NCBI RefSeq assembly: GCF_900114835.1
Contig: NZ_FOUJ01000003.1
Span: forward strand, 310,001-374,000
Direction: 5' to 3'
DNA from: Methanolobus profundi
Lineage (GTDB): Archaea; Halobacteriota; Methanosarcinia; Methanosarcinales; Methanosarcinaceae
Length of the DNA: 64,000 bases
A program made the translations under genes and the position numbers. The notes under the pieces were generated by a model that was not told where the DNA came from, ran no database searches, and saw only the letters and a list, made by a program, of their open reading frames with translations. This document shows positions 18,102-35,503 of the stretch, piece after piece; positions within the stretch are counted from its first letter, which is position 1, and the number at the start of each line of letters is the position of its first letter.

Positions 18102-20933
18102 TCAACTCCAGAATCTCTTGTTCTTGGCATAGTTCCTTTCAGCGACCAGAATATCACGATAGAAAGCTTCCTCATCATGTCGCATCTTCTGTATCACACG
18201 GGTTGCCATCTCAGGACCAACTCCCCTGCTTGCAAGCGCTACCACTGCCATTTTCCCATGGGTCATCACAATATTCGCATTCCTATAGACCCTGCGGATA
18301 CGTTTGATCTCCTCCTTTGCAGTGATCTTATCCTGTTTCCTCACAAGCTTTATCTCCTCCTCTTCCCATGGCTTCAAAGCAGCCACAAGACCGGAATCAC
18401 ATACCGGACAGATTATCTCGTCAGGAACGTTCTTAACTTTCCTTCTTGACGTCCATTTCTTGCAATGCACACAAAAGAGGATCACATTATCATTCATGAT
18501 ACGTTCCTTAAGTGCCATAACGATCGACCTGTCAGCCTTCTCCGGAGCCACAAGATCACGCTTCATGGAAAAACCGGACCTGCCTATGGGCGTAGATCCA
18601 CTAACAACAACACGGATCTCACCTGCGGCTATCCTTGAAAGAATATCTGTTACCCTCCTGACATCCAGCATATCGTGGAAGATCTCCCTGATGACCTCAT
18701 CATACATGGCAGTATCACGATATATCTCAAGGAGTTTCTTCATGCTTATCCTGTCATAATCAAGATCCTTGCTCAGAGCACCGAACTTCCTGGCAACATG
18801 TACCATCTTCCACTTCATAAGTGAAGTGTTCTTCAATGTCATCTCGATGATAGGTTCAATATGTTCCGGCTGAATATCCTGCAACAGGGTTTCGATCTCC
18901 TTCGCCTTTATCCTTCGTGGAAGGGTCATGCGGATCCTGTATGGATCGATCTCCTGTGCAACACTGCTCCCATACCTTGCAGCAAGTAGCGACGTAAGGA
19001 CCTTCCCCAGAGTCTCATTTGCATTGTGTCCAACGCATGTGTTTATCAGAACGGCATCCCCATCATTCTCTATAACGAACATATGCTGGTCAGGAAGCGG
19101 ATGCCCACCTTCCACATGTTCCCTAAGAATAGAAAGCAGATCCAAAAGACTCTCATGGTCGATCGGATAAATGGAACATATCTCTTTTGCGATATGATCA
19201 TCATCTTTTTCCTCATGGATCATACCTGCGATCAGTGAACGGATGTTCGCAACTTCCTGAGCAACCTCGAATGGAACAGGGATCTCCTCGCCGACCCAGC
19301 TTGGGATCTCACCCATCCCCCTTACAGGTTCCACTTTTATCCTGTTGCGATCGCCCACCATCTCAATGACCCTCCACATATCACCCTTGGTAATGAACAC
19401 AGCACCCGGTGTTGCAAAATTGATGACGAAAGCCTCGTCCAGAACACCAACGGTCCTTCCGGTGACTATATCGAATATCTCATACTTCTTCTCATCCGGG
19501 ATCATGGAAAGATTATCGTAATAATATTGCCAGCTCTTCCTTCTGCGACTGATATTATCGGAACCTTCTTCCTGCCAGACCATTCTGTAATCCTTGATCT
19601 GATCGATGACCTTCCTGAGAACCTCGATCCGGAGGTTCCTGAACGGATAGGCACGTTTGAGGATACTGTATATCTTCTCTATCCCAATATCCCCGAAATC
19701 AAGCACTATCCCCGCAAGTTGATTGGCAACAACATCAAGAGAGTTCATATGAGGAGAAATGGATTCAACCTTGCCTGCCATGGCCAGTTTACATATCGCC
19801 ATGCTCTCTGCCACATCATCGGCATCCATGGCAATGATAGTCCCCCTTGACACCTCATGTATCCGATGTCCTGCACGTCCAACACGCTGCAATAATCTTG
19901 AGACCTGCCTGGGGGAACCGTACTGTACCACATGGTCCACATTACCTATATCGATACCAAGCTCCATGGAGGACGTACATATCAGACCTCTGAGATCACC
20001 ATTCTTGAAAGATTCCTCTGCTTCTATACGGGAATCGACCGAAAGGGAACCATGGTGAACTCCAACAGGAAGTTCCAGCATATTGAATCCGGCAGCAAGC
20101 GCTTCTGCACTTTGTCTTGTGTTCACGAAAACTAGCGTGGAAACATTATCCATTACAATATCCCTGACGCATCGGATGTGTGCTGCAAAATTGATATCAC
20201 ATGCCAGTTTTTTTGAAATGGTCATGTCCTCATCTGTGACCTGTGGACAGACAACACTGAAATCAAGAAGTTTCAGCAGAGAAACCGACACTATGGAAAC
20301 ATCCCTCTCTGCACCTGCAAGGAACTTTGCCACCACTTCAGGATTTCCCACCGTGGCTGAAAGACCAATCCTCTGGAACTCACCAGATAGTTCTACAAGT
20401 CTTTCAAGACCAACAGTGAGCTGAGTTCCCCTCTTTGAGGAGGCCATCTCGTGGATCTCATCAACTACCACATGTGTCACATAGCTCAGGTTCTTACGCA
20501 AACGTGAACCGGTGAACATAGCCTGTAATGTCTCAGGTGTCGTTATCAGGAAATCAGGCGGTTTGCGTGATTGTTTCTGTCTTTCATACTGGGAAGTATC
20601 ACCGTGTCTCACCTGCACAGTGATGCCGAGTTCCTTTCCCCACCACTGGATACGGGATAGCATATCACGATTCAGCGCCCTTAACGGAGTGATGTAGAGA
20701 GCGGAGATACCAACTCTCTGCTCCGTGGTCTTTGCAAGGATAGCATGAAATATCGGAAGGACCGCAGATTCGGTCTTACCGGAACCAGTTGGAGCGATTA
20801 GGAATGTGTGGTCACCTTTCATGATATATGGGAAGACCTTTTCCTGAGGTTCCGTTGGAGCATTGAAGCCCTGCTTCTCAAGAGCATCCTGGATCGCCGG
20901 GTTGAATGAATCGAACACGTTTCCAAAACTCAT
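18102..20933 (-). CDS. Lhr-type superfamily 2 helicase
   Basis: A 943-residue DEAD/DEAH-type helicase. Motif I APTGSGKT lies near residue 48 and is preceded by the Q-motif-like [10 protein letters not shown]. Motif Ia is TPLRALN, motif II DEIHE, motif III SATVG, and the second RecA domain has VGRAGHR (motif VI). It is followed by a winged helix and a C-terminal region as in archaeal Lhr-core and Lhr-like helicases. A CXXC pair near the C-terminus (VHCKKW and CPVCDSG) looks like a small zinc ribbon. Lhr proteins unwind DNA 3' to 5' and act in repair. ATG overlaps the stop of the phosphoesterase gene (ATGA), so they are translationally coupled. Confidence 0.9.
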
Positions 20934-21781
20934 TTTTTAGCTCCCTTTCGTTTTCTTCTGGGACGTACTTTACTCTCTTCCAGTTTCCTTATGTTCTTGA
21001 GCTTACCAAGCTGGGTCCCATCCAGCAGATAGGCCTGAGCATTATCAATATCAACACCTTTTGATGAGAACAGGGGACCAAGAAGGTCATCGTGCATGGA
21101 TTCGTTGAAGGCAACGCCACCACAAAGCTCATTGAAAGATGGAACGACGATAAGTTCCGGGTCGTTCCAGTTATCATTATCCTCACCCAGTTCGAGACTT
21201 GTAAAATGGCCCTGAAGTACTGAAAGGTTCAGACGTGTCCTGATCCAGCTCTGCTCCACAGTTGCATATCCCAATGAATCAGTAAGACGGATAGTAGGGT
21301 GATTATGTGCAGTTATAATGTAATCAGCAGCCAGCAGTTTTGGATCTGGCCATGTGTGTCCGTGGAAATATCCCACATCCTCAATAACAGAACCACGCAC
21401 AGGATGAACATTTATGTCCTTCCCTTCCGGTAGCAGATATTCTATACCGCCGTCATGGTTGCCAGGAAAGATATCCACTATTGCATGGTCTGAGAGCTCA
21501 GAAAGGAAATACGGGATCTCATCCCTTTCCTGCCAGGATATCTGTGGTACATTATGTTTCACATCCCCGAGCAGGATCACTCTGTCAGGTGAGACCTTTT
21601 CGATGTAAGCAAGTACTCTCTCAAGACCAAATTTCATACGGCTTGGAATGGAGAATCCACTTCTGTAGAGATCCCACTCTATACCCAGATGCACATCCGC
21701 GATCACAAGTGCCTTCGTCTCGTTGCTTACCACGAGTGCAGGTTCATCAATTATGGGATCGATCTCTATTGTCATTGTCAC
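20930..21781 (-). CDS. ICC-type metallophosphoesterase (COG1407-like)
   Basis: A 283-residue calcineurin-like phosphoesterase. The metal-binding motifs are visible in order: [25 protein letters not shown] and AHNHP. This set matches the archaeal family usually found beside Lhr-type helicases. The substrate is unknown; nucleic acid ends are plausible given the partner. The C-terminus is strongly basic ([11 protein letters not shown]), suggesting nucleic acid contact. It overlaps the helicase gene by four bases and follows the 145-residue membrane protein gene by 6 bp, so the three form one operon. Confidence 0.85.
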
Positions 21782-21787
21782 GGAGAG

Positions 21788-22225
21788 TTAGCTATTGTCA
21801 TGATGCTTATCTTTAGCCTCATTCCTGTCCATACGGTCTATCTTCTCGGAAAGCTCAAGAACGACATGTTTCAGTTCAGTAATATCACTTTCTAGATCCA
21901 ATACCTTGTTGAAAAGTGGACTTCTGTTATCCTTTATGGCCTGTTCCTGTGAAAAGCGCTGTTTGCTTGGGAACACATAGACATAGGTCAGCCACATGCC
22001 TATGAATGCTGCAATGAACAATGCTGCCAGGAAGAAGAGATAATGGGGAAAGAGCGTCCTCATGAAACTGTCACCTGAACTGTAATACTGCAATCTGGTA
22101 ATCATCAGGAAGTTCAGCAGGGAGAATAAGAACATGGTCTCTCCTACAATTATCAGCAACCCACCTACCTTTGTGGACATTTTCCGTTGCTTTGGAACGA
22201 TCCTGTCGATAATGGAACTCATCAA
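21788..22225 (-). CDS. Two-helix membrane protein with C-terminal coiled coil
   Basis: A 145-residue protein with transmembrane segments at about 20-42 and 62-85, followed by a C-terminal helix with heptad pattern (LDLESDITELKHVVLELSEK, about 110-130) and an acidic, His-containing tail. No known family recognised. It is the first gene of the operon with the phosphoesterase and the Lhr-type helicase, so it may anchor or assist them, but this is only context. Confidence 0.65.
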   Translation of the reverse strand: MMSSIIDRIVPKQRKMSTKVGGLLIIVGETMFLFSLLNFLMITRLQYYSSGDSFMRTLFPHYLFFLAALFIAAFIGMWLTYVYVFPSKQRFSQEQAIKDNRSPLFNKVLDLESDITELKHVVLELSEKIDRMDRNEAKDKHHDNS

Positions 22226-22722
22226 GGAAATATTGGACCCATGTGATATTTATATTTGTAGTGTTGTGAGGACATTCAAAAATTCGTTATTTTTGCAAAA
22301 CGACATCACCTGAAAGAGTAGGTCCGGCATTCATGTTCTCTATTTTAACAGGAGCAATAAGGCTGTTCATCATAAATTTGACAAGGGACATGAAAGGCTC
22401 TTGTAATTATAAGCCAAGCATCTTTGATCGAGTTTACCCCCATTAAAACAGGACATATGAGCTTTAAAATTAAAAATAGGCCATAATAAGCACTTATTCT
22501 ATTGATTTTAGATTCAAATCAGCATATAAACTGATATTTCAGATAATGTAAGTTATTTTTTAAAATAAAAAGTTAATATCAATTTTATTTAGTTCTAAAG
22601 TAGTTATATCCAATTATTATTTTAAAAAATGGCTCTGAACTATTTATTTTGAGCAAAACAGATTTATTCTCAGTATTTAGTTATATACATCTTTCAGAGT
22701 TGTCTGAATTGGCTTAAAGCTG
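22226..22722. other. AT-rich intergenic region
   Basis: About 500 bp between the divergent membrane protein and Cys-cluster genes. It is AT-rich, especially 22490-22690, and holds no ORF or convincing RNA structure that I can see. TATA-like stretches occur near 22640-22690 and could serve the plus-strand gene at 22723. Confidence 0.4.
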
Positions 22723-23340
22723 GTGAAAATAACGTCTATAATAAATAGCGCTGCTGTGAAAAAAGCAATTCGATATAGCGTGGTTCAGAACATCCTGAAA
22801 CACTATCAATGCCCTGATACTTGTGGAGCACATTGTTGTAGTAAAGGACAGATACACATGTTCGAGGATGAGGTCGAGGTCCTGACCATACAAGATGCGG
22901 AAAAAGCCAGAAACATTACAAATGAAGGTTTATCTGCAGGCCTTTACCTGATGAATGCACCTTGTTCTTTCCTCAATATGACCGGCAGATGCGAAGTGTA
23001 CGATAGAAGGCCTACTGTTTGTGGTATGTATCCCTTTAAAGTAAATACATCCGGCAATTCTGTTGGACTGCAGCCCTGCCCAATTGGTTTTTTGATAATC
23101 CAGGATTTTGCTGAGTGGATCGTTACATCCTTTTCAAGATCAGATGTATCAGATGAAGAAAAGGCCAGGATAAAAGAAGAATGGAAAAAAAATGTCGATG
23201 CATATGCAGCAGAACTTGTTGACTTCCATTCCAAACAGACACTTAACGAGATGCAGATACCTTTTGATGAACTGGAGATGCTTTCAATGTTCCTGTCTTC
23301 AGGTTCGAACGTATCTACTTTGAAAAGAGAGACACACTGA
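22723..23340 (+). CDS. YkgJ-family cysteine cluster protein
   Basis: A 205-residue protein with the conserved Cys set of the YkgJ/UPF0153 zinc- or iron-binding family: CPDTCGAHCC near residues 30-39, PCSFLNMTGRCEVYDRRPTVCGMYPF in the middle (cited in parts: PCSFL, GRCEVYDRRP, CGMYPF), and QPCPIG. The biochemical role is not established; some relatives are linked to methylation or metal-centre maturation. The start is GTG 22723, after AAAGCTG, a weak ribosome binding site. It is monocistronic as far as can be seen. Confidence 0.78.
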   Translation: MKITSIINSAAVKKAIRYSVVQNILKHYQCPDTCGAHCCSKGQIHMFEDEVEVLTIQDAEKARNITNEGLSAGLYLMNAPCSFLNMTGRCEVYDRRPTVCGMYPFKVNTSGNSVGLQPCPIGFLIIQDFAEWIVTSFSRSDVSDEEKARIKEEWKKNVDAYAAELVDFHSKQTLNEMQIPFDELEMLSMFLSSGSNVSTLKRETH

Positions 23341-23527
23341 CCCTGAACTTTTAATTTTATTATAGATCAAAGATCTCCTGTAGAATTTTATCTCGTCAAC
23401 TGTAAACTCTGCTATATTGAGATATGAGATCCCAATAGAATAAAGTATGAGCTACTTAGTGTAAATACAGATGCTGATATGACTTTTGTACGCCTTTGTT
23501 CGCCTCAACCCGAAAATATGAGAATCT

Positions 23528-23640
23528 ATTTATAGAGAAAAAATAGAATATAGAGTGGTCTGGGGTGGCATAATAAGTATTAATTGAGCTTAGACAGTTC
23601 ACTTTGAATTTCGATTTTTAAAATATGCTCAATTAACAAA
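23528..23640 (+). promoter_or_regulatory. Promoter and 10-bp inverted repeat upstream of the katG unit
   Basis: TATA-like TTTATAGA at about 23528-23536 places the transcript start near 23557. In the following leader is a perfect 10-bp inverted repeat, TTAATTGAGC (23580-23589) and GCTCAATTAA (23627-23636), with a 37-nt spacer, ending 6 bp before GGAGGAG. It could be a leader hairpin controlling translation, or an operator. The upstream part of this gap, 23341-23527, shows nothing further. Confidence 0.5.
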
Positions 23641-23658
23641 ATGGAGGAGTGGAACAAA

Positions 23659-26033
<2,375 letters not shown>

Positions 26034-26049
26034 ATAGATCGTGGCATAA

Positions 26050-26096
26050 AAGCTTCGTGGGGTTCTGTAGTATGATCAGACTCCCACGGAGTTTAT
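26050..26096 (+). terminator. Possible katG terminator
   Basis: CTTCGTGGG pairs with CCCACGGAG (one mismatch) around a 21-nt loop, followed by TTTATTACTATATTT. It lies about 20 bp after the katG stop. The T-tract is interrupted, so this is a moderate call. Confidence 0.45.
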
Positions 26097-26160
26097 TACT
26101 ATATTTGAGTATGGCGTTTCAATAGGGTGTGGGACGCCGTCTTTTTCTTAGTGTGATTTT

Positions 26161-26274
26161 CAGGAAGCAGTCGGTAATGTGAAGAAAAATGCGAAGGTTG
26201 ATACGCCTTTTACGCTTAATGCACATAATAAAGAACGGTTGGATAAATGGGAGAAACTTGTTGCAAATGGTTGA
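26161..26274 (+). pseudogene. Possible C-terminal gene remnant
   Basis: A 37-codon open stretch without an obvious start (stop codon just upstream, GTG at 26179) reads QEAVGNVKKNAKVDTPFTLN and then AHNKERLDKWEKLVANG before TGA. The clean, charged, protein-like composition looks like the end of a former gene. I cannot name the parent. The rest of the gap 26034-26433 holds only the katG hairpin and AT-rich sequence. Confidence 0.3.
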
Positions 26275-26433
26275 TTTTGGTGGCATTTAAGAGTGTCTTT
26301 TTGTCGGTTTCTATGGAAGTTCAGAAGACAAACACAAAAAACAAAACGATAGACTTCAGAGACAATAAAAATAATATATGAAAGCAATGACGATGGTATT
26401 TCTGTTGTTCACTACTATCTCTATCAAAGGGTT

Positions 26434-29004
26434 TCAGTTTTGCAAATTATCTACAATAACATGGTCCTTAATTTCACCAAGAAACTTGCTTTCCGAATCG
26501 ATTTGGCTGTAAATTATTAGATTTTCCATTGCTCTGGTTATTGCCACATAGAAAAGTCTTCTTTCCTCTTCCTCTGTATCTTTTTTTCTTCCTTTGGTAG
26601 CAAGCTCGAAAATATCAGGATTTTCTTTTTTACAGGGAAAACCATATAGTCCATCTACAACGTTGAGCAAAAACACAACTCTTGCTTGCAAGCCTTTACT
26701 TGCATGAACAGACATAAAACGAATTTTATTCCATGATCGTTTTTCAAAGGAAATAGGCACGTTACAGACAACAGCATAATCACGTAGCTTGTTTTTCAAT
26801 ATGGGACTATTGGCTATCCTTGAAAGAATTATGATATCCTGTGGATTATATCCTTTTTGCAAGTAACTGTTTATGGTACTTATACAATGCTGAGCAACTT
26901 GTGTATAGTAGTTATTCACGAATCTGGTATTGTGAATTGAAATGTATACTCTTATAGGCTCCAGAGTATTATTGTGGGCTAATGCATTCTTTTCAATCTG
27001 AACATCTCCATTGTGCTTGATTATTTCTGCCCCGGTGTCCACTATTGATTTGCAGCTTCTGTAGTTCACAGTAAGATGTGTAATAGTAGGATGATCAAAG
27101 TATTGATCGAACCGTACAAAAAAATCTAGGTTCGAACCGGAGAAGCCCATTATACTCTGCCAGTCATCACCTACACAAAACAGTTTGCAACCAGTATTTT
27201 TATCCATCAATGATTTAATGAGTTCATATCTTTGCTGACTGATATCTTGATATTCATCAACAAGAATATGGTCAAAATAATTCTTATATAGTTCTTCTTT
27301 TTGCTTGAGATTTCTGACTGCAAGGTTTATCATATCAGAGAAATCAATTTTGTTTTCAGACCGCAGTCTGTTCTCATAACTAGAGTAAATGATAAGAGCT
27401 ATATTAGCAAATTCGATTTGTTTCAAAGACCAGGATTCATTTTTAATTCTTTGTTCTATTGCTTCTGGAGTTAAATTGTATGTTTTAGATATATTTATGA
27501 AGTTACCAATATTCTTAGGAAGGTCTCTTACAGAAACTACACATTCTTTCCATACTCGATTCACAAGTTTTTCATATGTAACTTGTGTAAACTCAAAATC
27601 TTTTCCAGGATTTTTTTTCTTTAATGCAATTAACATCCTGTCTTTCAAAATTTCAATGAAGTTATTTTGTTTAAAGTCTTTATGGGTGGTTTCTACAAGT
27701 AAATATTTGTCTTGCTCTGCAAATTTCTTCTTTTTTTGTTCCATACTATTTTTGTAGACTTCAGTAGGATTCTTTCCTTTAAACCATTCAGGAACCGTTC
27801 CATACTTATCTAGAGCCCAATGTTCAATATATATATCATAATCCGGAAAGAAAAAATCAGGTTGTGGAACGTGAGTGTCACCGTCTTCTTTCTTATACAG
27901 CATCCATTCTGCAGGACTTTCATAAAGAACTTTTACTCTTCTTCCATTCAAATCATGGGTTACAAAAAAGTTGAGTATCTCTCTTTCAGCTTCACTTTTA
28001 ACTTTGGTACCATCTAAGGCAGTATAAGTTAAATTTCGCATATACTCATAGTACGTCTCTTTATCCTCGAAATCAGTTTTTGACTTGCGTATTTCACTGT
28101 CTCCATACGCTTTCATGTAGTTAATGATATCATTTTGAAACTTGTTATCATTTATTTTTTCATTATACACTGAAAGAACAAGTCGTTTTTGTTCAGTCTC
28201 ATCAGCAATCTGAAGAGAATCTATATCTGAATTCCTGTTTGCTTCCTTCAAAATCTCTAAACCTAGTGAGTGAAATGTTTTAATCTTGACATCAAAACCA
28301 AATCTTGAGTCAAGCCTCTCATGCACTTCCTTGGCAGCTTTATTCTGAAAAGCAAGAACAAGAATCCTTTTTGAGTTTATAGTATCTGGTTTACGTTCAA
28401 TTAGGTATGCTGCCCTTGTAATCAAAACTTCTGTTTTTCCTGATCCGGCTCCCGCAACGACTAAGTTATGGGTATCATCTGTAACAACTGCAACTTTTTG
28501 AGATGTGTCTAGTGGGAAAGGTGATTTCTTGAACAAGTAGTCATACTCTAATATTCTTTTTTCAACAAAAGCAGTATTGTCATATGTTTGAAAATTATTT
28601 TTCAGTTCTGTGACTATGTAAATTGATTTACTAATGAAATTGGTAAAGTCATTTGAGAATAGTGCTTTATTTTTGTTAATAAATTGGAGTTCTTCCAGAC
28701 ATAGATTGCATTTCTCGATAGTTGAGAATCTTTTATGGTAAGTAAAATAAGTGTCATTTATATTATTGTAGATATCAGCTAGTTCTGTGATTAGAGCTTT
28801 ATTCTCTTTTTCAACTTCATGAATTAAAGTTTCTTTCAATTTCAATAAGTCATTCTTTTTTTGTTTTGCCCTTTTAACTAAAAATATACCGATAATTAAA
28901 GGGATTAATATGATACCTACAAGTATCAGATGATTCTGCTGTTTAATCTCTGATATTAAAGATTTGAGATGCTTTGTTTTTTTGTATGACATTATACTTT
29001 CCAA
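26434..29004 (-). CDS. Membrane-anchored UvrD/HelIV-type SF1 helicase with inserted nuclease-like domain
   Basis: An 856-residue protein. It has one transmembrane helix at 26-43, a helical/coiled region to about 150, and SF1 helicase motifs: Walker A AGAGSGKT (184-191), DEYQD (583-587), GDDWQS (612-617), VHASKG (766-771) and EEERRLFYVAITRA (812-825). Between the RecA domains, about 330-445, sits a PD-(D/E)XK-like segment with KSEAEREI (336-343), QPDFFFPDYD (381-390) and IYIEHWALDK (391-400), as in HelIV-type helicases. The base composition is clearly more AT-rich than the neighbours, suggesting acquisition. It lies next to a second nuclease candidate on the same strand (88 bp), so the pair may form a DNA-processing or defence system (inference). 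Confidence 0.8.
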   Translation of the reverse strand: MESIMSYKKTKHLKSLISEIKQQNHLILVGIILIPLIIGIFLVKRAKQKKNDLLKLKETLIHEVEKENKALITELADIYNNINDTYFTYHKRFSTIEKCNLCLEELQFINKNKALFSNDFTNFISKSIYIVTELKNNFQTYDNTAFVEKRILEYDYLFKKSPFPLDTSQKVAVVTDDTHNLVVAGAGSGKTEVLITRAAYLIERKPDTINSKRILVLAFQNKAAKEVHERLDSRFGFDVKIKTFHSLGLEILKEANRNSDIDSLQIADETEQKRLVLSVYNEKINDNKFQNDIINYMKAYGDSEIRKSKTDFEDKETYYEYMRNLTYTALDGTKVKSEAEREILNFFVTHDLNGRRVKVLYESPAEWMLYKKEDGDTHVPQPDFFFPDYDIYIEHWALDKYGTVPEWFKGKNPTEVYKNSMEQKKKKFAEQDKYLLVETTHKDFKQNNFIEILKDRMLIALKKKNPGKDFEFTQVTYEKLVNRVWKECVVSVRDLPKNIGNFINISKTYNLTPEAIEQRIKNESWSLKQIEFANIALIIYSSYENRLRSENKIDFSDMINLAVRNLKQKEELYKNYFDHILVDEYQDISQQRYELIKSLMDKNTGCKLFCVGDDWQSIMGFSGSNLDFFVRFDQYFDHPTITHLTVNYRSCKSIVDTGAEIIKHNGDVQIEKNALAHNNTLEPIRVYISIHNTRFVNNYYTQVAQHCISTINSYLQKGYNPQDIIILSRIANSPILKNKLRDYAVVCNVPISFEKRSWNKIRFMSVHASKGLQARVVFLLNVVDGLYGFPCKKENPDIFELATKGRKKDTEEEERRLFYVAITRAMENLIIYSQIDSESKFLGEIKDHVIVDNLQN

Positions 29005-29092
29005 AAAAAGATTATTAGAAGTAGTAACTTATAACTTTCAAACGATGTAACTATTTTCCCATATTTCTCACTAAATGTATACTCTTCAACCA

Positions 29093-29767
29093 TTAAACAA
29101 CATTAAAAAACTTGACAGCAAAATCACAGAATTTTATTATTACATCTTTATCCAATTCAAATTCTTTTCTATTACCTAAATAGTTCCTCGAATTTGGATT
29201 GATTTCTTTGCCTTCTTTTAGTTCTTTGTACGTAATACATTTAATATGCTTTTTAGATACAAGTATGAAATAACAGTTCTCATAAGGATAATCTTCACCG
29301 CCTATATCTTTAAATGTAAGCGTTTCATCTTTTCTAAACTTCACTTCAATAAAATAAACATCACCTGTTTTTGGGCTTTGAATAACAAAATCCGGCATTT
29401 TTCTGATGTTGTCCGCAACATCACCACGCACACCCTTTAGAAGATTCATGACTCCTGGTATTGTGTTTTCCATTCCATATCTAAAAACAGAGTATTTTAA
29501 TTGTAAAAATAATTCTTCAATTAATGTTTCGGCAATTCGTCCTTTAATCATACTTTCAACAAAATTAGCATTTTTACTTGAAAGTCCATTGGAATTATTT
29601 TTTGATGAGGTTGTTTCTGCTTCAACTTTTTTTATTTGGAAAACTTCTGTTGAATCGGAGTTACTTTTTTGGTGTATTCTGCATAAAGAACGATTATATT
29701 TTTTCATTGAAAATTTATATTCGGCAGCAGTAATCTTTTCTTTACAATTTGAACAGAAATAATCCAT
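29093..29767 (-). CDS. Zinc-ribbon PD-(D/E)XK nuclease-like protein
   Basis: A 224-residue protein from ATG 29767. The N-terminus has a zinc-binding pattern C5-X2-C8-X20-C29-X2-H32. A Ser/Asn-rich linker follows to about 68. The rest resembles a restriction-endonuclease fold: helix with KGRIAETLIEE (Glu80), KMPDFVI (Asp126) and YFIEVKF (Glu141, Lys143), the classical D...ExK arrangement. A longer in-frame ATG at 29881 would add 38 residues without the zinc motif's usual start. A TATA-like TTTTAAAATATTT on the minus strand about 50 bp upstream suggests a short leader. It is upstream of, and probably co-transcribed with, the AT-rich helicase gene. Confidence 0.65.
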   Translation of the reverse strand: MDYFCSNCKEKITAAEYKFSMKKYNRSLCRIHQKSNSDSTEVFQIKKVEAETTSSKNNSNGLSSKNANFVESMIKGRIAETLIEELFLQLKYSVFRYGMENTIPGVMNLLKGVRGDVADNIRKMPDFVIQSPKTGDVYFIEVKFRKDETLTFKDIGGEDYPYENCYFILVSKKHIKCITYKELKEGKEINPNSRNYLGNRKEFELDKDVIIKFCDFAVKFFNVV

Positions 29768-30001
29768 AATATCAACGCCAAAAGTTATAAAGTGCGTAAA
29801 TATTTTAAAAGTTTCCACCTGATTTTTACTACAAGTAAAATTCAAGCTATATACATCCGAAATTTTTGAACATATAAACATCAGGATACGTATTACCCAT
29901 ATCTATTCTAAAAGGGTGAATTCAACCCTGACAACACATCCCATAATAACCTTAAAGAATAACCTTCGCATTAACTCTGCTTATATTAACGAGGCTTTCA
30001 A

Positions 30002-30955
30002 ATGGAACATTGTCATTCACATGGAGAGAAACTCCAGAATCCTATAAAACAGGCAAAGATAACAGAGAATATGAGCGTTGACGAGCTCGTGTGTGCCATC
30101 GATGGCTGTGCATTTGGTGCAGGCAAACTGGCAGATGCAGTTGACATCTACACCGAGATGCTTGCGAATGGTTCTACCAGCTTTTTCGGACTTGCAGGTG
30201 CAATGGTGCCGGCAGGAATGCGTCAGATAGTCACCGACCTGATCTATGACGGTTACATCGATGTACTTGTCACAACCGGAGCCAACATGGTTCACGAGAT
30301 AGTAGAATCAATGGGACTGCATCACTACAAAGGATGTGCAGATTGTGATGACATCGAACTGAAACACGATGAGATAAACAGGATATACGATGTCTATCTT
30401 CCTGAACCTTACTTTGTTGACTTCGAGGAGAAGCTCAAGGCAATACTCTCCGATGTAGGTACAGAGACCATCTCCATCAGGGAATTCATGACACACCTTG
30501 GGAACAACATCGATGACAAGGACTCCATCCTCAGAGCAGCAGCAGATATGAACGTACCTGTCTACTGTCCTGCGATACAGGATTCCATGATAGGACTTCA
30601 GGCATGGCTCTACAAGCAGAACAATGCACTCAACGTCGATGCATTCTCAGACATGAAAGAGATCATCGATATCTGCTACGAGGCAAAGGACCCGGGAGCA
30701 GTACTTATCGGCGGCGGTGTCCCGAAGAACTACATATTCCAGTCCATGCTTATCACACACCAGGAATTCGAGTACGCGATCCAGCTTACAATGGACACCC
30801 CGGAAACAGGCGGACTCAGCGGTGCAACACTTGATGAAGCACGTTCATGGGGTAAGGTCAGCGAAACAGCACGCTCTGTGACAGTCCACTCTGATGCCAC
30901 CATCACACTTCCAATAATGGTCGCAGCAGCAAGGAGCAGACTTGCCAACAAGTAA
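30002..30955 (+). CDS. Deoxyhypusine synthase
   Basis: A 317-residue enzyme transferring the aminobutyl group of spermidine (via NAD) to a lysine of aIF5A, giving deoxyhypusine. The fold motifs are GAGKLADAVDIYTEM, LAGAMVPAGMRQI, VTTGANMVHE, and GGGVPKNYI. The active-site Lys is in EARSWGKVSE, matching the essential WGK lysine of human DHS. An N-terminal HCHSHGEK stretch is His-rich. ATG follows GAGG. It is followed by pyrF 40 bp downstream, probably in one transcript. Confidence 0.9.
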   Translation: MEHCHSHGEKLQNPIKQAKITENMSVDELVCAIDGCAFGAGKLADAVDIYTEMLANGSTSFFGLAGAMVPAGMRQIVTDLIYDGYIDVLVTTGANMVHEIVESMGLHHYKGCADCDDIELKHDEINRIYDVYLPEPYFVDFEEKLKAILSDVGTETISIREFMTHLGNNIDDKDSILRAAADMNVPVYCPAIQDSMIGLQAWLYKQNNALNVDAFSDMKEIIDICYEAKDPGAVLIGGGVPKNYIFQSMLITHQEFEYAIQLTMDTPETGGLSGATLDEARSWGKVSETARSVTVHSDATITLPIMVAAARSRLANK

Positions 30956-30995
30956 ATGGGTCTTGATATCGCAAATATAGACAAGGAGAATTCAC

Positions 30996-31649
30996 ATGGA
31001 AAGGAAGACAGGACTCATACTCGCACTTGATGTTACAGACAGAGAAGAAGCTGTAAAAATATCCGAAAAGGTTGCAGGATACGTGGATGCCATCAAGATC
31101 GGCTATCCATTGGTACTTTCAACAGGAATGGATATGATAAGCAAGCTCTCAGAATATGCACCTATAATTGCAGATTTCAAGGTAGCTGACATACCTAACA
31201 CCAACCGCCTTATCTGTGAACAGGTCTTCAAAGCAGGTGCTGATGCTGTTATCGTCCAGGGATTCACCGGACACGACAGTCTTGAAGCAGCTGTGAAACT
31301 GGCAAAGGAGCAGAACAAGGACATCTACGTAGTTACAGAGATGAGCCACCCCGGTGCTCTTGATTTCATGCAGGATGTCGGAGAAGGTATCGCAAAGATG
31401 GCAGCCGATGCAAAAGCATCAGGTGTCGTTGCACCAGCAACACGTCCTGAAAGGGTCACAGAGATCAGGAAGATAATAGGTAGCGAACTCTCCATAATAT
31501 CACCTGGTGTCGGTGCACAGGGAGGCACTGCCTCAGACGTGATCAAAGCCGGAGCTGACTGGGTAATTGTCGGAAGAAGTATCTACCAGTCCGAAGATCC
31601 AGCAATGGCTGCAAAAAAGCTGGTCGATGAGATGAAGGAATTCATCTGA
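30996..31649 (+). CDS. pyrF: Orotidine 5'-phosphate decarboxylase
   Basis: A 217-residue TIM-barrel enzyme that makes UMP from OMP. The catalytic Lys-Asp array is [11 protein letters not shown]. The start [15 protein letters not shown] and the phosphate-binding VIVGRSIY near the C-terminus complete the pattern. The length is standard for archaeal enzymes. ATG 30996 follows AAGGAG. It is in the same orientation as the deoxyhypusine synthase gene and ends just upstream of a C/D box sRNA. Confidence 0.95.
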
Positions 31650-31691
31650 ACTTATCGACACATTATTCAAAATATTAAATTGAGATATAAC

Positions 31692-31757
31692 CTGTGTGCC
31701 AATGATGAGAGAACACATCTGATACGTGATGAACCCTATGAGTTCTGAGGCACACAG
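31692..31757 (+). ncRNA. C/D box sRNA (2'-O-methylation guide)
   Basis: All four boxes are present in order: C box ATGATGA (31702-31708), D' box CTGA (31719-31722), C' box GTGATGA (31726-31732), D box CTGA (31745-31748). The ends are closed by a perfect 9-bp stem, CTGTGTGCC (31692-31700) and GGCACACAG (31749-31757). Guide regions are about 10 nt (31709-31718) before D' and 12 nt (31733-31744) before D. Such RNAs, with L7Ae, Nop5 and fibrillarin, direct ribose methylation of rRNA or tRNA. Targets were not identified. It may be transcribed with pyrF upstream. Confidence 0.8.
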
Positions 31758-31787
31758 ATATCTGCTAATTTTACCAAGCTATCTCGT

Positions 31788-33344
31788 TTAACGCATCAGT
31801 TCAATATTTGTTTTAAGTATCTGTGAGAATACTTCGTTCTTCTTGAAATCAGACCTTGCTTCCTCAAGACTTCTCTTAAGGTCAGCAACATTGGATTCAA
31901 GACTCTGTATGTAGATGGTCTGCTGCTCAAGTTTATTATTAAGCTTCTTTATATCAAGGTCCTGACGATGGATAGTGACATGATTGCCAATTTCCTTGTT
32001 CGTCTTCTCGACCATCTCATCAAGTTCTTTTCTCTTCGCTTCCATCTCAGCAAGAGCATTTTCCATCTCAGCTTCGAACTTTGAATTTTCCTCACGCTTT
32101 TGACCCAGCTTCTCGGTCTCAGCCCTGATCTCAGCTTTCCTTGCTTCAAGAGCTTTCATATCCTCATGGAAAGCATGCTCCTTTTCCTCGTGAGCCTTGA
32201 TGTTCTCTTCATGCTTCAACTTGAGTTGTTCACGCTCGGTCTTGAAGTTGGCCTTCATATCCTCAAAGGTCTTCTCGTAGGCTTTTATCTTCTCTTCGTG
32301 ATCCAGCTTGAGTTTCTCACGTTCAGCCTTGAATTCAATCTTCATATCCTCAAAGGCCTTTACCTTATCCTGGAATGAAAGCTCTTTGTCCTCATGGGAC
32401 TTCAGACGTTCCTCATAAGTAGCCACTGATCTTTCAAGTTCTGTGGCCTTGTTACTTATCTCAGATAGTTCGGTCTGGATATGACCTTTCATCTTTTCAA
32501 TAGAAGAGCGTTTTTCAGTAAGAAGTGACTCGTCATCCTCTAACTGGGTCCTGAGTGTTTCAATATCTGCCTTTTTGCGATTAAGCTCTTTTAGCTCAGC
32601 ATAGAAGCTTTCCTTCAGCACTTCAACAGCTGCGGGACATGTAGCTTCTGCAAGCTCCAGAGATATCTCCTCACCGGAGGCAAGCTTCTCTTCCAGTGAC
32701 CTGCACTGCTCATCAAGCTCAGCCTTCTTTTTAGAATATTCTTCCAGTTCGGCATCATAGGTGGACCTGAGAGATGTCAGTTCCTCCATTTTAGAACTAT
32801 ATTCAGAGAATTCCTTTTCATGGTCACGACGGGAACTCTCGAATTCCTTCACTTTGGATTCGAATTCAGAACGCCTTTTTTCGAACTCAGCGATCTCGTT
32901 CTCAAGACCTTCCTTCTTTTCCTTTGGTATGGCCCTGTCTGCTTTTTCCATTGCAGACTTCAGTATCGAACATTTCTTGTTGAGAGCCTTTTCCTGATCA
33001 GAGAACTTGCTTCGCAGATCATCAAGTTCTTTCTGCTTTGCCTCATATTCACTGATCTCAAGCTCATAGCGCTTCCTTATCTCAACAAGCTGAGCTTCTT
33101 TCTGAATGAATCCATCAAAATCAAAACCAGTAACAACATTAGCATGGTTTCCAGATGATCGCTGATCCACCTGCACAGGTACTGCTCCCGGAACATAGTT
33201 CACCGGAGCCACAGGAGTGGTATCATTACCTGCTTCCTTTTCCATCTCTTCTTTTACAATTGGTTTTCGATAAATATTGGGAGTGAAAACCTTCGCTGTC
33301 TTCTCAGCCTTTTTACTTTCATCTGATAAATTCAATGAATTCAT
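31788..33344 (-). CDS. Long coiled-coil protein coupled to the actin-like ATPase
   Basis: A 518-residue protein. The first 90 residues are polar with a Pro/Val-rich stretch. The remainder is almost wholly charged heptad sequence (Glu/Lys/Leu), predicted as a long coiled coil. Residues about 320-420 contain a tandem repeat of about 35 residues around FEDMK-x-FK-x-ERE-x-LKL-x-HEE. No enzymatic domain is seen. Its start codon overlaps the stop of the actin-like gene by four bases, so the products are made together and probably interact; filament scaffolding or anchoring is inferred. It resembles bacterial and archaeal structural coiled-coil proteins only in general. Confidence 0.75.
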   Translation of the reverse strand: MNSLNLSDESKKAEKTAKVFTPNIYRKPIVKEEMEKEAGNDTTPVAPVNYVPGAVPVQVDQRSSGNHANVVTGFDFDGFIQKEAQLVEIRKRYELEISEYEAKQKELDDLRSKFSDQEKALNKKCSILKSAMEKADRAIPKEKKEGLENEIAEFEKRRSEFESKVKEFESSRRDHEKEFSEYSSKMEELTSLRSTYDAELEEYSKKKAELDEQCRSLEEKLASGEEISLELAEATCPAAVEVLKESFYAELKELNRKKADIETLRTQLEDDESLLTEKRSSIEKMKGHIQTELSEISNKATELERSVATYEERLKSHEDKELSFQDKVKAFEDMKIEFKAEREKLKLDHEEKIKAYEKTFEDMKANFKTEREQLKLKHEENIKAHEEKEHAFHEDMKALEARKAEIRAETEKLGQKREENSKFEAEMENALAEMEAKRKELDEMVEKTNKEIGNHVTIHRQDLDIKKLNNKLEQQTIYIQSLESNVADLKRSLEEARSDFKKNEVFSQILKTNIELMR

Positions 33345-34405
33345 ATTATCAGCTCCTCATCCTGTTTTCCGGCAACCAGTTGTTTCCAGAATTCGGGTGG
33401 CATATTCTTTGCAAGCTCGAGTGCACCTTCGGATATGCCATAAACAGAGTCGATATCAGAGCGAACTTTCCCTCCACCGAGCTCTTTTAGTTCATTCTCG
33501 ATAAAAGTACCAATATTGGTCAGACCACTGGTACCTCCAAAAATATGAATATTGTTCCTCAGTGACTCACGCATATCCGGATCAACATCGGAGAGGATCC
33601 TTGTAATACCAGAAACAATATCAGTAATAACAAATTCGCATGCGATCTCCAACTCATCAGCAATGGATCCCTGAACATTACCATCTTCAAGGGGGACCTC
33701 GACAGTACAATTGTCTGAAACTGGACCAAGATGCCCATACTTTTCCTTCCATTCTCTGGCAACTTCTTCCGTCACCTGTGATGCTGGCCATCTTTCCTTG
33801 ATAAGTTTAACGATCTCACGGTCAATATCCTTTCCTGCACAGGGAATACTAAGATGATCAGTATCCTGTGGGACTTCACTATTGATGATACAGATATCGG
33901 TTTTGTCTAAACCCATGTCCACAATGATCGAACCACCAAGAAGACCTTTCTTGTATGCTGCACAAAAGATCTCATCTACAAGCATTGCACCTGAGAATAG
34001 CTCCCTTGACAGTTCCATAACCTTCTTTTTGTATTCCTTATCAGAATCAGAAGGCACACCAACTATGGCATATACATTTCTATTCAGGTCAATGCCATTT
34101 TCAGCAAGGAGAGCCTCAAGGAATTTTCTTAAAGCCATTACATCCTCTTCGCTTTTAAGACCGCCAGCCAGAGGTTCCCTTATATCGCCATCTTTCAGGT
34201 CCAGAGCTTCTCTACCTAAAAGAACCGTTCCTTCAGAACCACCATCTGATCTTGAAAGAGCTACAACACTTCGCTCAGAGAATCTCTTCCCGTCGCTTGT
34301 GCAAACTGATGTTTTGAACATTCCTGCATCTATTCCAATATACAGGTGTTCTTCATTGCTGATCTTATCATCCATGTCATCAACTACTATATTATTAAGA
34401 CCCAC
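33341..34405 (-). CDS. Actin-like ATPase (MreB/MamK/ParM superfamily)
   Basis: A 354-residue ASKHA protein with the actin-fold nucleotide motifs: phosphate-1 YIGIDAGMFKTSV near residues 22-34, connect-1 VGVPSDSD, phosphate-2 IIVDMGLDKTDICI (about 160-173) and the adenosine motif IHIFGGTSGLTNI near 290. Length and layout fit bacterial-type actins such as MamK or MreB rather than Hsp70 or sugar kinases. As drawn it starts at GTG 34405; ATG at 34375 is an alternative. A TATA-like TAATATATAAA on the minus strand (about 34466-34478) lies upstream. It is coupled to a coiled-coil gene downstream. Filament formation is inferred. Confidence 0.75.
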   Translation of the reverse strand: MGLNNIVVDDMDDKISNEEHLYIGIDAGMFKTSVCTSDGKRFSERSVVALSRSDGGSEGTVLLGREALDLKDGDIREPLAGGLKSEEDVMALRKFLEALLAENGIDLNRNVYAIVGVPSDSDKEYKKKVMELSRELFSGAMLVDEIFCAAYKKGLLGGSIIVDMGLDKTDICIINSEVPQDTDHLSIPCAGKDIDREIVKLIKERWPASQVTEEVAREWKEKYGHLGPVSDNCTVEVPLEDGNVQGSIADELEIACEFVITDIVSGITRILSDVDPDMRESLRNNIHIFGGTSGLTNIGTFIENELKELGGGKVRSDIDSVYGISEGALELAKNMPPEFWKQLVAGKQDEELII

Positions 34406-34612
34406 ATGGAGTTACAACAAAATACATGGGATCCGTTTTTCTTGAATAATGAATGTTCTATTAAATCAGTATTTATATATTATGAACATGGGATCGCACC
34501 TTATGGCGATAAATATAGTGAAATAAATTAAAAAGCCATCAAAAAACAGTAGCAATTGAGCCAATATAGTGACATTGACCCATGGACAAGAAATCGAATT
34601 ATATTTGCGAGC

Positions 34613-35503
34613 CTAGATAAAAGTATCTTTATGTTTTTTATAAAGAACATGTATGATCCCATCTGCAAGACCCAGCTGAGGAACATGCATCGAATTGATA
34701 TCTCCCCATTTCATAACTGAGGAATATATCTTAGAAGCAGGCACTATCACATCAGCCCGATCCGGACGAAGGCCCAGTTTTGTTATACGTTGCTCCAGAG
34801 TAAAGCTCTTAAGATATCTGTTGAGATACTTAAGATCCCCACGTCTGATAAGGGTCCCATCCTTCCTTCCAGACATACGGAAAAGCTTATTGATATTTCC
34901 GCCACTACCGATCGCATAGTCAGGATCGTGCTTTTCAGTAACTGTCTTCACCCACTTTTTCATCTCATTCCAGTCTTCTTTTGTCACGATACCTTCAAGG
35001 ATCCTTATTGTCCCTATATTGAAAGACCTGTAAGCAAAGACCTCACTGCCCTTGAAAAGTATAAGTTCAGTACTGCCACCTCCCACATCGATATGAAGAT
35101 ACGTAGAACTACTATGGCCTATAATTTTTTCAATGCGATTGGAATAGATGATCTTCGCCTCTTTCCTTCCACTTATAACATTGAGACGAATACCACTCTT
35201 TTTCTTTATCTGTGATATTATCTCAGCGCTGTTATCAGCCTCCCTCATAGCAGAGGTCGCACATGCCATATAATCGACCGGCCCATAAGCATCCATCAGA
35301 TGCTTGAAAGCTATCATGGTACTTACAAGACGTGAAACCTTGTCCTTAGAGATGCTATTGTGGACAAAAGCATCCTCTCCAAGTCGAATAGGCATTCGTA
35401 TAAGTGAAACTTTCTCATAGATCGGCTCTATACCTTCAGTATCAACTCTGGAAAGGAGCAAACGCACTGCATTGGAACCAACATCTATGGCCGCGAACTT
35501 CAA
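34613..35503 (-). CDS. Ppx/GppA-type exopolyphosphatase
   Basis: A 296-residue protein of the Ppx/GppA ASKHA family, consisting of the two N-terminal domains only, which is common in archaea. Motifs are DVGSNAVRLLLSRV at the N-terminus, ATSAMREADN, and GGGSTELILF (about 160). It removes phosphates from polyphosphate or the pppGpp 5' end; with ppk1 as partner, polyphosphate is the likely substrate. ATG overlaps the ppk1 stop by four bases. It is the last gene of the ferredoxin-CHAD-ppk1-ppx operon. Confidence 0.88.
   Translation of the reverse strand: MKFAAIDVGSNAVRLLLSRVDTEGIEPIYEKVSLIRMPIRLGEDAFVHNSISKDKVSRLVSTMIAFKHLMDAYGPVDYMACATSAMREADNSAEIISQIKKKSGIRLNVISGRKEAKIIYSNRIEKIIGHSSSTYLHIDVGGGSTELILFKGSEVFAYRSFNIGTIRILEGIVTKEDWNEMKKWVKTVTEKHDPDYAIGSGGNINKLFRMSGRKDGTLIRRGDLKYLNRYLKSFTLEQRITKLGLRPDRADVIVPASKIYSSVMKWGDINSMHVPQLGLADGIIHVLYKKHKDTFI

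What the first reader, a model, noticed from the sequence alone, without database searches (positions are those of the whole stretch)
26434..29767. AT-rich helicase-nuclease pair: candidate undescribed defence system
Two same-strand genes, much richer in AT than their surroundings, encode a membrane-anchored SF1 helicase with an inserted PD-(D/E)XK-like segment and a zinc-ribbon protein with its own D...ExK motif. Helicase-nuclease pairs are a recurring form of antiviral systems (for example Gabija). This combination, with an N-terminal membrane helix and a zinc ribbon, is not one I recognise. A gene remnant (26161-26274) at its edge hints at past insertion here.
Basis: partly seen in the sequence, partly recalled or inferred. 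Interest (0 to 1): 0.65.

Follow-up and report, generated by a model that had tools for sequence, protein, structure and literature searches.

The report
Two nuclease genes that travelled together
In a methane-making archaeon, a DNA-unwinding enzyme with a built-in cutting-type domain sits beside a small DNA-cutting-type protein; the two moved together between two related species, but elsewhere each mostly travels alone, so they look like two separate defence-type genes rather than one new two-gene system.

Summary
The two genes are real: AT-rich (29-33% GC), open, under purifying selection. The helicase (HEL) is a helicase IV-like SF1 protein with a PD-(D/E)XK-type insert whose profile matches T7 endonuclease I. 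E. coli HelD lacks the insert, but 12 of 12 plasmid homologues examined carry it, so the architecture is widespread. The small protein (SML) is a zinc-finger PD-(D/E)XK nuclease, Hjc-like in fold, weakly VRR-NUC-like in sequence; relatives span methanogens, DPANN archaea and Bacteroidota.

The pairing is not conserved. In 185 genomes of the order SML occurs in 25, HEL in 22, both in 7, adjacent in 2. In those two Methanolobus genomes the 3.5-kb unit sits at different sites with dS 0.16-0.26 against 0.87-1.05 for two backbone genes: recent co-transfer. In both a casposon cas1 remnant lies beside it, on the side where some related casposons have type I R-M genes.

Verdict: two independently mobile, defence-type nuclease genes recently joined into one unit, not a Gabija-like obligate pair. 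SML, with at least two type I R-M subunit genes within about 8 kb in 12 of 80 loci, is the more novel lead. No function was tested.

The parts
26358..29899 (.). unit shared with a second Methanolobus genome (G136) at a different chromosomal site, 92% DNA identity
26434..29004 (-). HEL: helicase IV-like SF1 helicase with nuclease-type insert
28876..28932 (-). predicted N-terminal membrane helix (residues about 25-43)
   Evidence: hydropathy; model confidence low here
27631..28017 (-). PD-(D/E)XK-type insert of HEL, T7 endonuclease I-like (residues 330-458)
29093..29767 (-). SML: zinc-finger PD-(D/E)XK nuclease, 224 aa
29672..29755 (-). zinc-finger cysteines and histidine of SML (residues 5-32)
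29096..29578 (-). nuclease domain of SML (residues 64-224)
26161..26274 (+). 3' remnant of a casposon cas1 (casposase) gene
26275..26364 (+). GACA-rich zone that follows cas1 in related casposons, abutting the unit

Best explanation
These are two separate, independently mobile nuclease-type genes of the defence/genome-surveillance kind that were recently joined and have moved as one 3.5-kb unit, possibly as cargo of a casposon whose other genes are lost. Inferred working: HEL unwinds branched or gapped DNA near the membrane, and its T7-endonuclease-I-like insert cuts or grips the branch. SML is a metal-dependent endonuclease of the Hjc/VRR-NUC kind whose zinc finger holds DNA and which backs up type I R-M and other systems against incoming DNA. 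Shown: the domains, their conserved residues, the dispersal of each gene, the co-transfer of the unit, a cas1 remnant beside it in both genomes, and SML near type I R-M genes. Inferred: catalysis, substrate, membrane topology, defence, and casposon transport.
For: Independent dispersal: SML in 25 of 185, HEL in 22 of 185, both in 7, adjacent in 2; 1 HEL among 80 SML loci. Co-transfer: pair dS 0.26 and 0.16 against backbone dS 0.87 and 1.05 between the same two genomes, at different sites. SML and defence: at least two type I R-M subunits in 12 of 80 loci, against 0 of 110 HEL loci and 0 of 24 shorter dhs loci; between hsdM and hsdS in G082, G167 and G169 (Pfam for G167). HEL lies among a DEAD_2 helicase, BrxB, BrxC and an Eco57I-type methylase in one genome, G118. 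Insert against T7 endonuclease I: E=6e-4. SML against Hjc: Z 9.1, rmsd 2.7, 105 residues. A cas1 remnant next to HEL in both genomes, and hsd, methylase or KAP NTPase genes on the 3' side of cas1 in L319, L321 and L323-L325.
Against: No activity was tested. The ExK lysine of T7 endonuclease I is not a lysine in the insert rows (mostly W, F or Y), and the helix lysine (K424) is missing in 3 of 12 plasmid homologues, so the insert may only bind DNA. SML also sits beside housekeeping genes (PolD large subunit, prismane protein, SHMT, RuBisCO), so a repair role is possible. The cas1 remnants of the two genomes are different pieces (residues 374-404 and 336-370), and no casposon end or target-site duplication was found at the SML side, so shared casposon carriage is not shown. 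The gene 3' of cas1 in L328 is a PAS sensor kinase, not a defence gene. Of seven HEL loci whose neighbours were scanned, one holds several genes of a known defence system. The type I R-M profiles were built from the SML loci themselves.
Confidence: 0.6

Rival explanations
1. A true two-gene defence system: HEL senses and unwinds invader DNA at the membrane and SML is its nuclease partner, as GajB and GajA in Gabija.
For: Same strand, 88 bp apart in both genomes; moved as a unit; both under purifying selection. Both genes occur together in 7 of 185 genomes, about 3 expected (hypergeometric P 0.015, not corrected for kinship).
Against: Not adjacent in 5 of 7 genomes that hold both; 18 of 25 SML genomes lack HEL and 15 of 22 HEL genomes lack SML at the thresholds used; HEL has its own nuclease-like domain.
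Confidence: 0.15
2. DNA-repair genes rather than defence: HEL a fork-remodelling helicase IV-like enzyme, SML a Hjc-like junction resolvase, carried as accessory repair genes.
For: Both nuclease domains are nearest to junction-resolving enzymes; SML is well conserved, 54-72% identical to 66 of the 67 other rows of A4, from archaea and bacteria; some housekeeping neighbours.
Against: Patchy presence (25 and 22 of 185) and broken copies in several genomes, transfer between species, and the place near type I R-M genes.
Confidence: 0.2
3. Genes that serve the mobile element itself, such as casposon or plasmid maintenance, not the host.
For: Casposase remnant next to the unit; HEL relatives on many plasmids.
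Against: At E up to 1e-3 the SML and HEL loci outside the pair have no cas1 or polB of this casposon family nearby (0 of 18 HEL loci; in the SML sets of 22 and 80 loci only the locus of the second genome).
Confidence: 0.08

Closest known systems
E. coli DNA helicase IV (HelD, NF008276)
   Same: Helicase core; best curated NCBIfam model, 291 bits; 30% and 35% identity in the two core blocks
   Different: Below the family cut-off of 543 bits; E. coli HelD lacks the insert
T7 endonuclease I (1m0d, 2pfj)
   Same: Insert motif S-x2-E ... YE ... PDF ... E-x-x-G; E=6e-4 and 7e-4
   Different: ExK lysine not present; domain embedded in a helicase
Archaeal Hjc resolvase (1gef, 2wcw) and VRR-NUC
   Same: SML core fold, Z 9.1 and 8.9; 52 of 68 members hit VRR_NUC at E up to 0.1, best E 4e-5
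   Different: Window protein below the Pfam cut-off (15.8 against 23.8 bits); N-terminal zinc finger and conserved C-terminal part
Gabija (GajA-GajB)
   Same: UvrD-like helicase next to a nuclease; HEL hits GajB models through the helicase core
   Different: SML matches no PADLOC model at E up to 1; the TOPRIM-ATPase nature of GajA is recalled; pairing not conserved
Family 2 casposons of Methanosarcinales (reviewed in PMC9939771; passages read)
   Same: cas1 3' remnant and the GACA-rich zone that follows it, directly beside the unit
   Different: No PolB, full Cas1 or second terminal repeat found at the locus

Membership tests
Gabija | GajA (ATPase-TOPRIM, recalled) next to the helicase | tested here: not met
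   SML has 0 PADLOC families and a PD-(D/E)XK fold
Gabija | conserved two-gene operon | tested here: not met
   adjacent in 2 of 7 genomes with both, of 185
DNA helicase IV (NF008276 equivalog) | score above the curated cut-off | tested here: not met
   291 against 543 bits
UvrD/Rep superfamily 1 helicases | UvrD N- and C-terminal helicase domains | tested here: met
   PF00580 175.6 bits, PF13361 62.3 bits, above cut-off
PD-(D/E)XK superfamily (HEL insert) | fold order and E-D-E(x)K residues | tested here: inconclusive
   elements in order and E340/D383/E394 conserved; classical lysine absent, K424 in 9 of 12 plasmid homologues
PD-(D/E)XK superfamily (SML) | fold and catalytic E, D, ExK | tested here: met
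   E80, D126, K143 in 79 of 79; Hjc-like fold; residue 141 is E, or D in one lineage
VRR-NUC (PF08774) | score above the Pfam cut-off | tested here: inconclusive
   window protein 15.8 of 23.8 bits; 52 of 68 rows hit at E up to 0.1
casposon cargo | lies between cas1/polB and a terminal inverted repeat with target-site duplication | tested here: inconclusive
   a cas1 remnant on one side in two genomes, different pieces of the gene; no polB match in the window; terminal repeat and duplication not identified
anti-phage defence system | protects cells from phage or plasmids | not testable with these tools
   needs an infection assay

The most novel reading that the evidence does not exclude
SML founds an unrecognised, cross-domain family of zinc-finger Hjc/VRR-NUC-like defence nucleases that plug into type I R-M and other islands, and HEL belongs to a widespread, undescribed class of single-protein nuclease-helicases with a T7-endonuclease-I-like blade; in Methanolobus casposons have begun to assemble and carry the two as a composite defence cassette.
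Probability: 0.33. Interest if true: 0.65.

Novelty: new variant of a known kind. Interest (0 to 1): 0.42.

Why it matters
If SML is a nuclease that works beside type I R-M in archaea and bacteria, it is a defence component that PADLOC 2.0.0 and NCBIfam 20.0 do not model and that Pfam catches only as a weak VRR_NUC hit, and it can be tested in laboratory strains. The insert links helicase IV-like enzymes, for which little functional information is available (PMC8655204, passages), to branched-DNA cutting. The locus also suggests that casposons of methanogens can carry defence genes as cargo.

Tried and rejected
Gabija-like pair: rejected on adjacency. A phage or plasmid origin of SML: no relative in viral contigs by tblastn, none in plasmids, one weak partial phage hit (E 0.1; region looked at), one weak PHROG hit (phrog_6376, E 8e-4, unknown function). 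HEL as the RNA polymerase factor HelD: weak hits only (58.5 bits, cut-off 419). Sequence searches of PDB gave no convincing relative of SML, alone or as a profile. In the VIA-align listing other PD-(D/E)XK folds (I-Ssp6803I 9.0, SPARDA nuclease 8.8) tie with Hjc within 1 Z unit, so the nearest fold is not settled. Casposon ends: inverted-repeat scans of five loci gave a long pair only in L319, and no copy of the polB end lay in window 20001-36000 or in L080. Literature: searches listed no paper that by title and abstract start describes SML or the HEL insert, and one search listed none at all; passages of five papers were read (PMC8655204, PMC9939771, PMC6563490, PMC1913061, PMC12839542), none whole; the library lacks most subscription papers.

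Limits of counts: SML neighbours scanned were 98 same-strand genes picked from the list, larger clusters capped at two, so type I R-M is under-represented. The genome-contig scan kept 80 of 105 relatives. The conservation count used 79 rows of at least 150 aa, the tree 68. The HEL alignment for the model used 25 of 80 viral loci, chosen for coverage. The HEL threshold was 1e-40 and only five candidates were scored in many genomes. The type I R-M count has no matched control: profiles came from the SML loci; the other sets gave two or more subunits in 0 of 18, 0 of 80 and 0 of 12 HEL loci, 0 of 24 dhs loci, and 4 of 22 archaeal SML loci that partly overlap the 80.
Full report
Observation. HEL spans 26434-29004 on the minus strand (856 aa from a TTG; four rows share an IMS context that suggests the ATG at 28992), SML 29093-29767. 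GC is 29-33% from 27 to 30 kb. The window is from an archaeon of the genus Methanolobus: G136, of the same genus, has SML at the same position of a contig of the same length as Methanolobus vulcani PL 12/M; this identification is by matching coordinates.

HEL. Pfam gives a UvrD helicase (E=2e-51). The best curated NCBIfam model is DNA helicase IV, 291 bits against a cut-off of 543, so it is helicase IV-like but not filed as that equivalog. PADLOC hits (RTasHel, GajB) have their best stretches in the helicase core. Between the core motifs lies an insert that E. coli helicase IV does not have. In an alignment of the window protein, its G136 copy and 25 viral-contig relatives, E340, D383, E394, H395 and K424 are invariant. 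In 12 plasmid homologues E, D and E are kept in 12 of 12 and the lysine in 9 of 12, by reading. The AF2 model (pLDDT 83, pTM 0.79) shows helix 338-349, strands 384-386 and 391-396, helix 413-430 and strand 435-440, the PD-(D/E)XK order. A profile of the insert alone finds four T7 endonuclease I sequences at E=6e-4 to 3e-3 and nothing else at E up to 5. The lysine of the ExK motif is not kept, so activity is uncertain. Membrane helix: in 13 rows from the order (window included) the best 19-residue hydropathy near the N-terminus exceeds 2.4 in 9 and is 1.99 in one; in 12 plasmid homologues it is at most 1.98 (L298), and at most 1.66 in the other 11. The model has low confidence there, and topology was not tested; viral relatives were not examined for it.

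HEL distribution. 22 of 185 genomes of the order at E up to 1e-40. In plasmids 631 records match, 70 with at least 80% coverage; among the 30 rows listed most are annotated UvrD-helicase domain-containing protein. Neighbours in 12 plasmid regions vary: transposases, recombinases, and in places defence-type genes such as a restriction endonuclease, a Lit-family protein or DUF262. Among seven archaeal loci whose neighbours were scanned, one (G118, L061) has a DEAD_2 helicase on one side and BrxB, BrxC and an Eco57I-type methylase on the other; another (L062) has a Schlafen/AlbA-domain gene close by.

SML. No model in NCBIfam or PADLOC at E up to 1; in Pfam only VRR_NUC below cut-off, yet 52 of 68 rows hit VRR_NUC at E up to 0.1, best 4e-5; one weak PHROG hit of unknown function. 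The AF2 model (pLDDT 82, pTM 0.66) has a zinc-finger part and a nuclease domain. Foldseek's best match is an archaeal Holliday junction resolvase (E=2.5e-4); VIA-align gives Hjc Z 9.1, I-Ssp6803I 9.0 and the SPARDA nuclease 8.8, which are ties. E80, D126 and K143 are in 79 of 79 rows, C5, C8 and C29 in 69 of 79 each. Residue 141 is Glu or, in one lineage, Asp.

SML distribution. 25 of 185 genomes of the order, 10 of 294 of a phylum sample, none in viral contigs. In genome contigs 105 relatives, 80 kept, come from Methanosarcinaceae, Methanoperedens, DPANN lineages, Bacteroidota, Ignavibacteriaceae, Leptospiraceae and one Nitrosomonas bin, among others. A tree of 68 rows has an archaeal side and a mostly bacterial side; Methanoperedens falls with Leptospiraceae inside the bacterial side (96/91), and starred branches force at least two changes of domain.

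SML and defence. At least two type I R-M subunits lie in 12 of 80 loci with flanks up to 8 kb, at least one in 17 of 80; the HEL loci (18, 80 and 12) and 24 dhs loci have none with two (the profiles came from the SML loci, and the dhs loci are shorter). In G082, G167 and G169 SML sits between hsdM and hsdS on the same strand (Pfam checked for G167); in flavobacterial loci (L179, L188, L198, L202) it lies directly upstream of hsdR. Other neighbours include an AAA_5/EVE protein (McrB-like, a recalled label) and a Fic protein, and proteins that hit mad2/mad3, AriA, GajA, Old or TIR models, but also housekeeping genes.

The pairing. Both genes are in 7 of 185 genomes, adjacent in 2. Among 80 SML loci one has HEL, and it is the second of these two genomes. 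About 3 genomes with both are expected by chance (P 0.015, kinship ignored). So the pair is not a conserved system. It is, however, a real unit: 92% identical DNA over 26358-29899 in G136, where it lies between pdx-type (SNZ/SNO) genes and a PNPOx gene on contig C9, while the dhs-pyrF locus of G136 is on contig C8. dS is 0.26 (HEL) and 0.16 (SML), against 0.87 and 1.05 for dhs and pyrF of the same two genomes. dN/dS of 0.19 and 0.14 indicates that both are maintained.

Insertion. The dhs-pyrF query matches 27 of 27 genus genomes; in 24 relatives compared the DNA match starts between 29938 and 30031 and never reaches further left. In 7 of these 24 (L114, L119-L124) sequence of 22001-22262 lies within about 1.2 kb of dhs, so katG, the remnant and the pair are extra there. 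The remnant is 91% identical to part of another copy in the same genome. The full form, 404 aa in L321, matches Cas1 (E=3e-68) and lies near a PolB gene (E=1e-7): casposons, of family 2 by the description in PMC9939771 (passages). Copies or fragments occur in 25 of 27 genus genomes. Downstream of cas1 is a GACA-rich zone and then variable genes. Of four loci whose 3' neighbours were scanned, L324 has hsdR/S/M, L321 an N6 methylase, L319 a KAP NTPase and L328 a PAS sensor kinase; L323 and L325 share the hsd clusters. Whether these genes lie inside the casposon ends was not settled. The window keeps the cas1 end and this zone up to about 26364, and the shared unit starts at 26358. G136 has a cas1 remnant in the same convergent orientation beside HEL, but it is another piece of the gene (residues 336-370 against 374-404). 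Thus the unit sits where casposons have variable genes, but no far terminal repeat or duplication was found, so casposon transport is inference. Fragments of cas1 also lie by katG in 6 of 10 loci, so the katG side may be a casposon hot spot of its own.

Mechanism. Most likely HEL is a solo helicase-nuclease for branched or forked DNA and SML a solo endonuclease of incoming DNA; both are inferred from fold and neighbourhood. Repair of host DNA is the main rival.

Noticed in passing
L319, L321, L323, L324, L325 (Methanolobus-genus genomes): Next to casposon cas1/polB genes, on the 3' side of cas1, lie type I R-M genes (L323-L325), an N6 methylase (L321) or a KAP NTPase (L319); L328 has a sensor kinase there. 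Casposons may be carriers of defence genes in this genus.
   Followed up: partly
genus-wide, for example window 26161-26274: Copies and short C-terminal fragments of the casposase are scattered through 25 of 27 genus genomes, up to 18 per genome.
   Followed up: partly
window 23841-26033 and L332-L341: katG (52% GC) is patchy in the genus (12 of 27 genomes match, one of them by 28 bases only) and lies near casposase fragments in 6 of 10 fetched loci.
   Followed up: partly
window about 22262-29939: Variable spot: in 7 of 24 relatives (L114, L119-L124) sequence of 22001-22262 lies within about 1.2 kb of the dhs gene, so katG, the remnant and the pair are extra there.
   Followed up: partly
L319:6068-6218 and 14528-14678: A 151-nt inverted repeat (87%) made of the polB 3' end flanks a casposon together with its KAP NTPase gene.
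   Followed up: no
L097, L098 (Methanoperedens): SML follows the PolD large-subunit gene directly, a housekeeping neighbour that does not fit defence.
   Followed up: no
L294 (Halorhabdus tiamatea plasmid): A 1537-aa HEL relative, much longer than most others, next to DUF5797 and DEAD/DEAH helicase genes.
   Followed up: no
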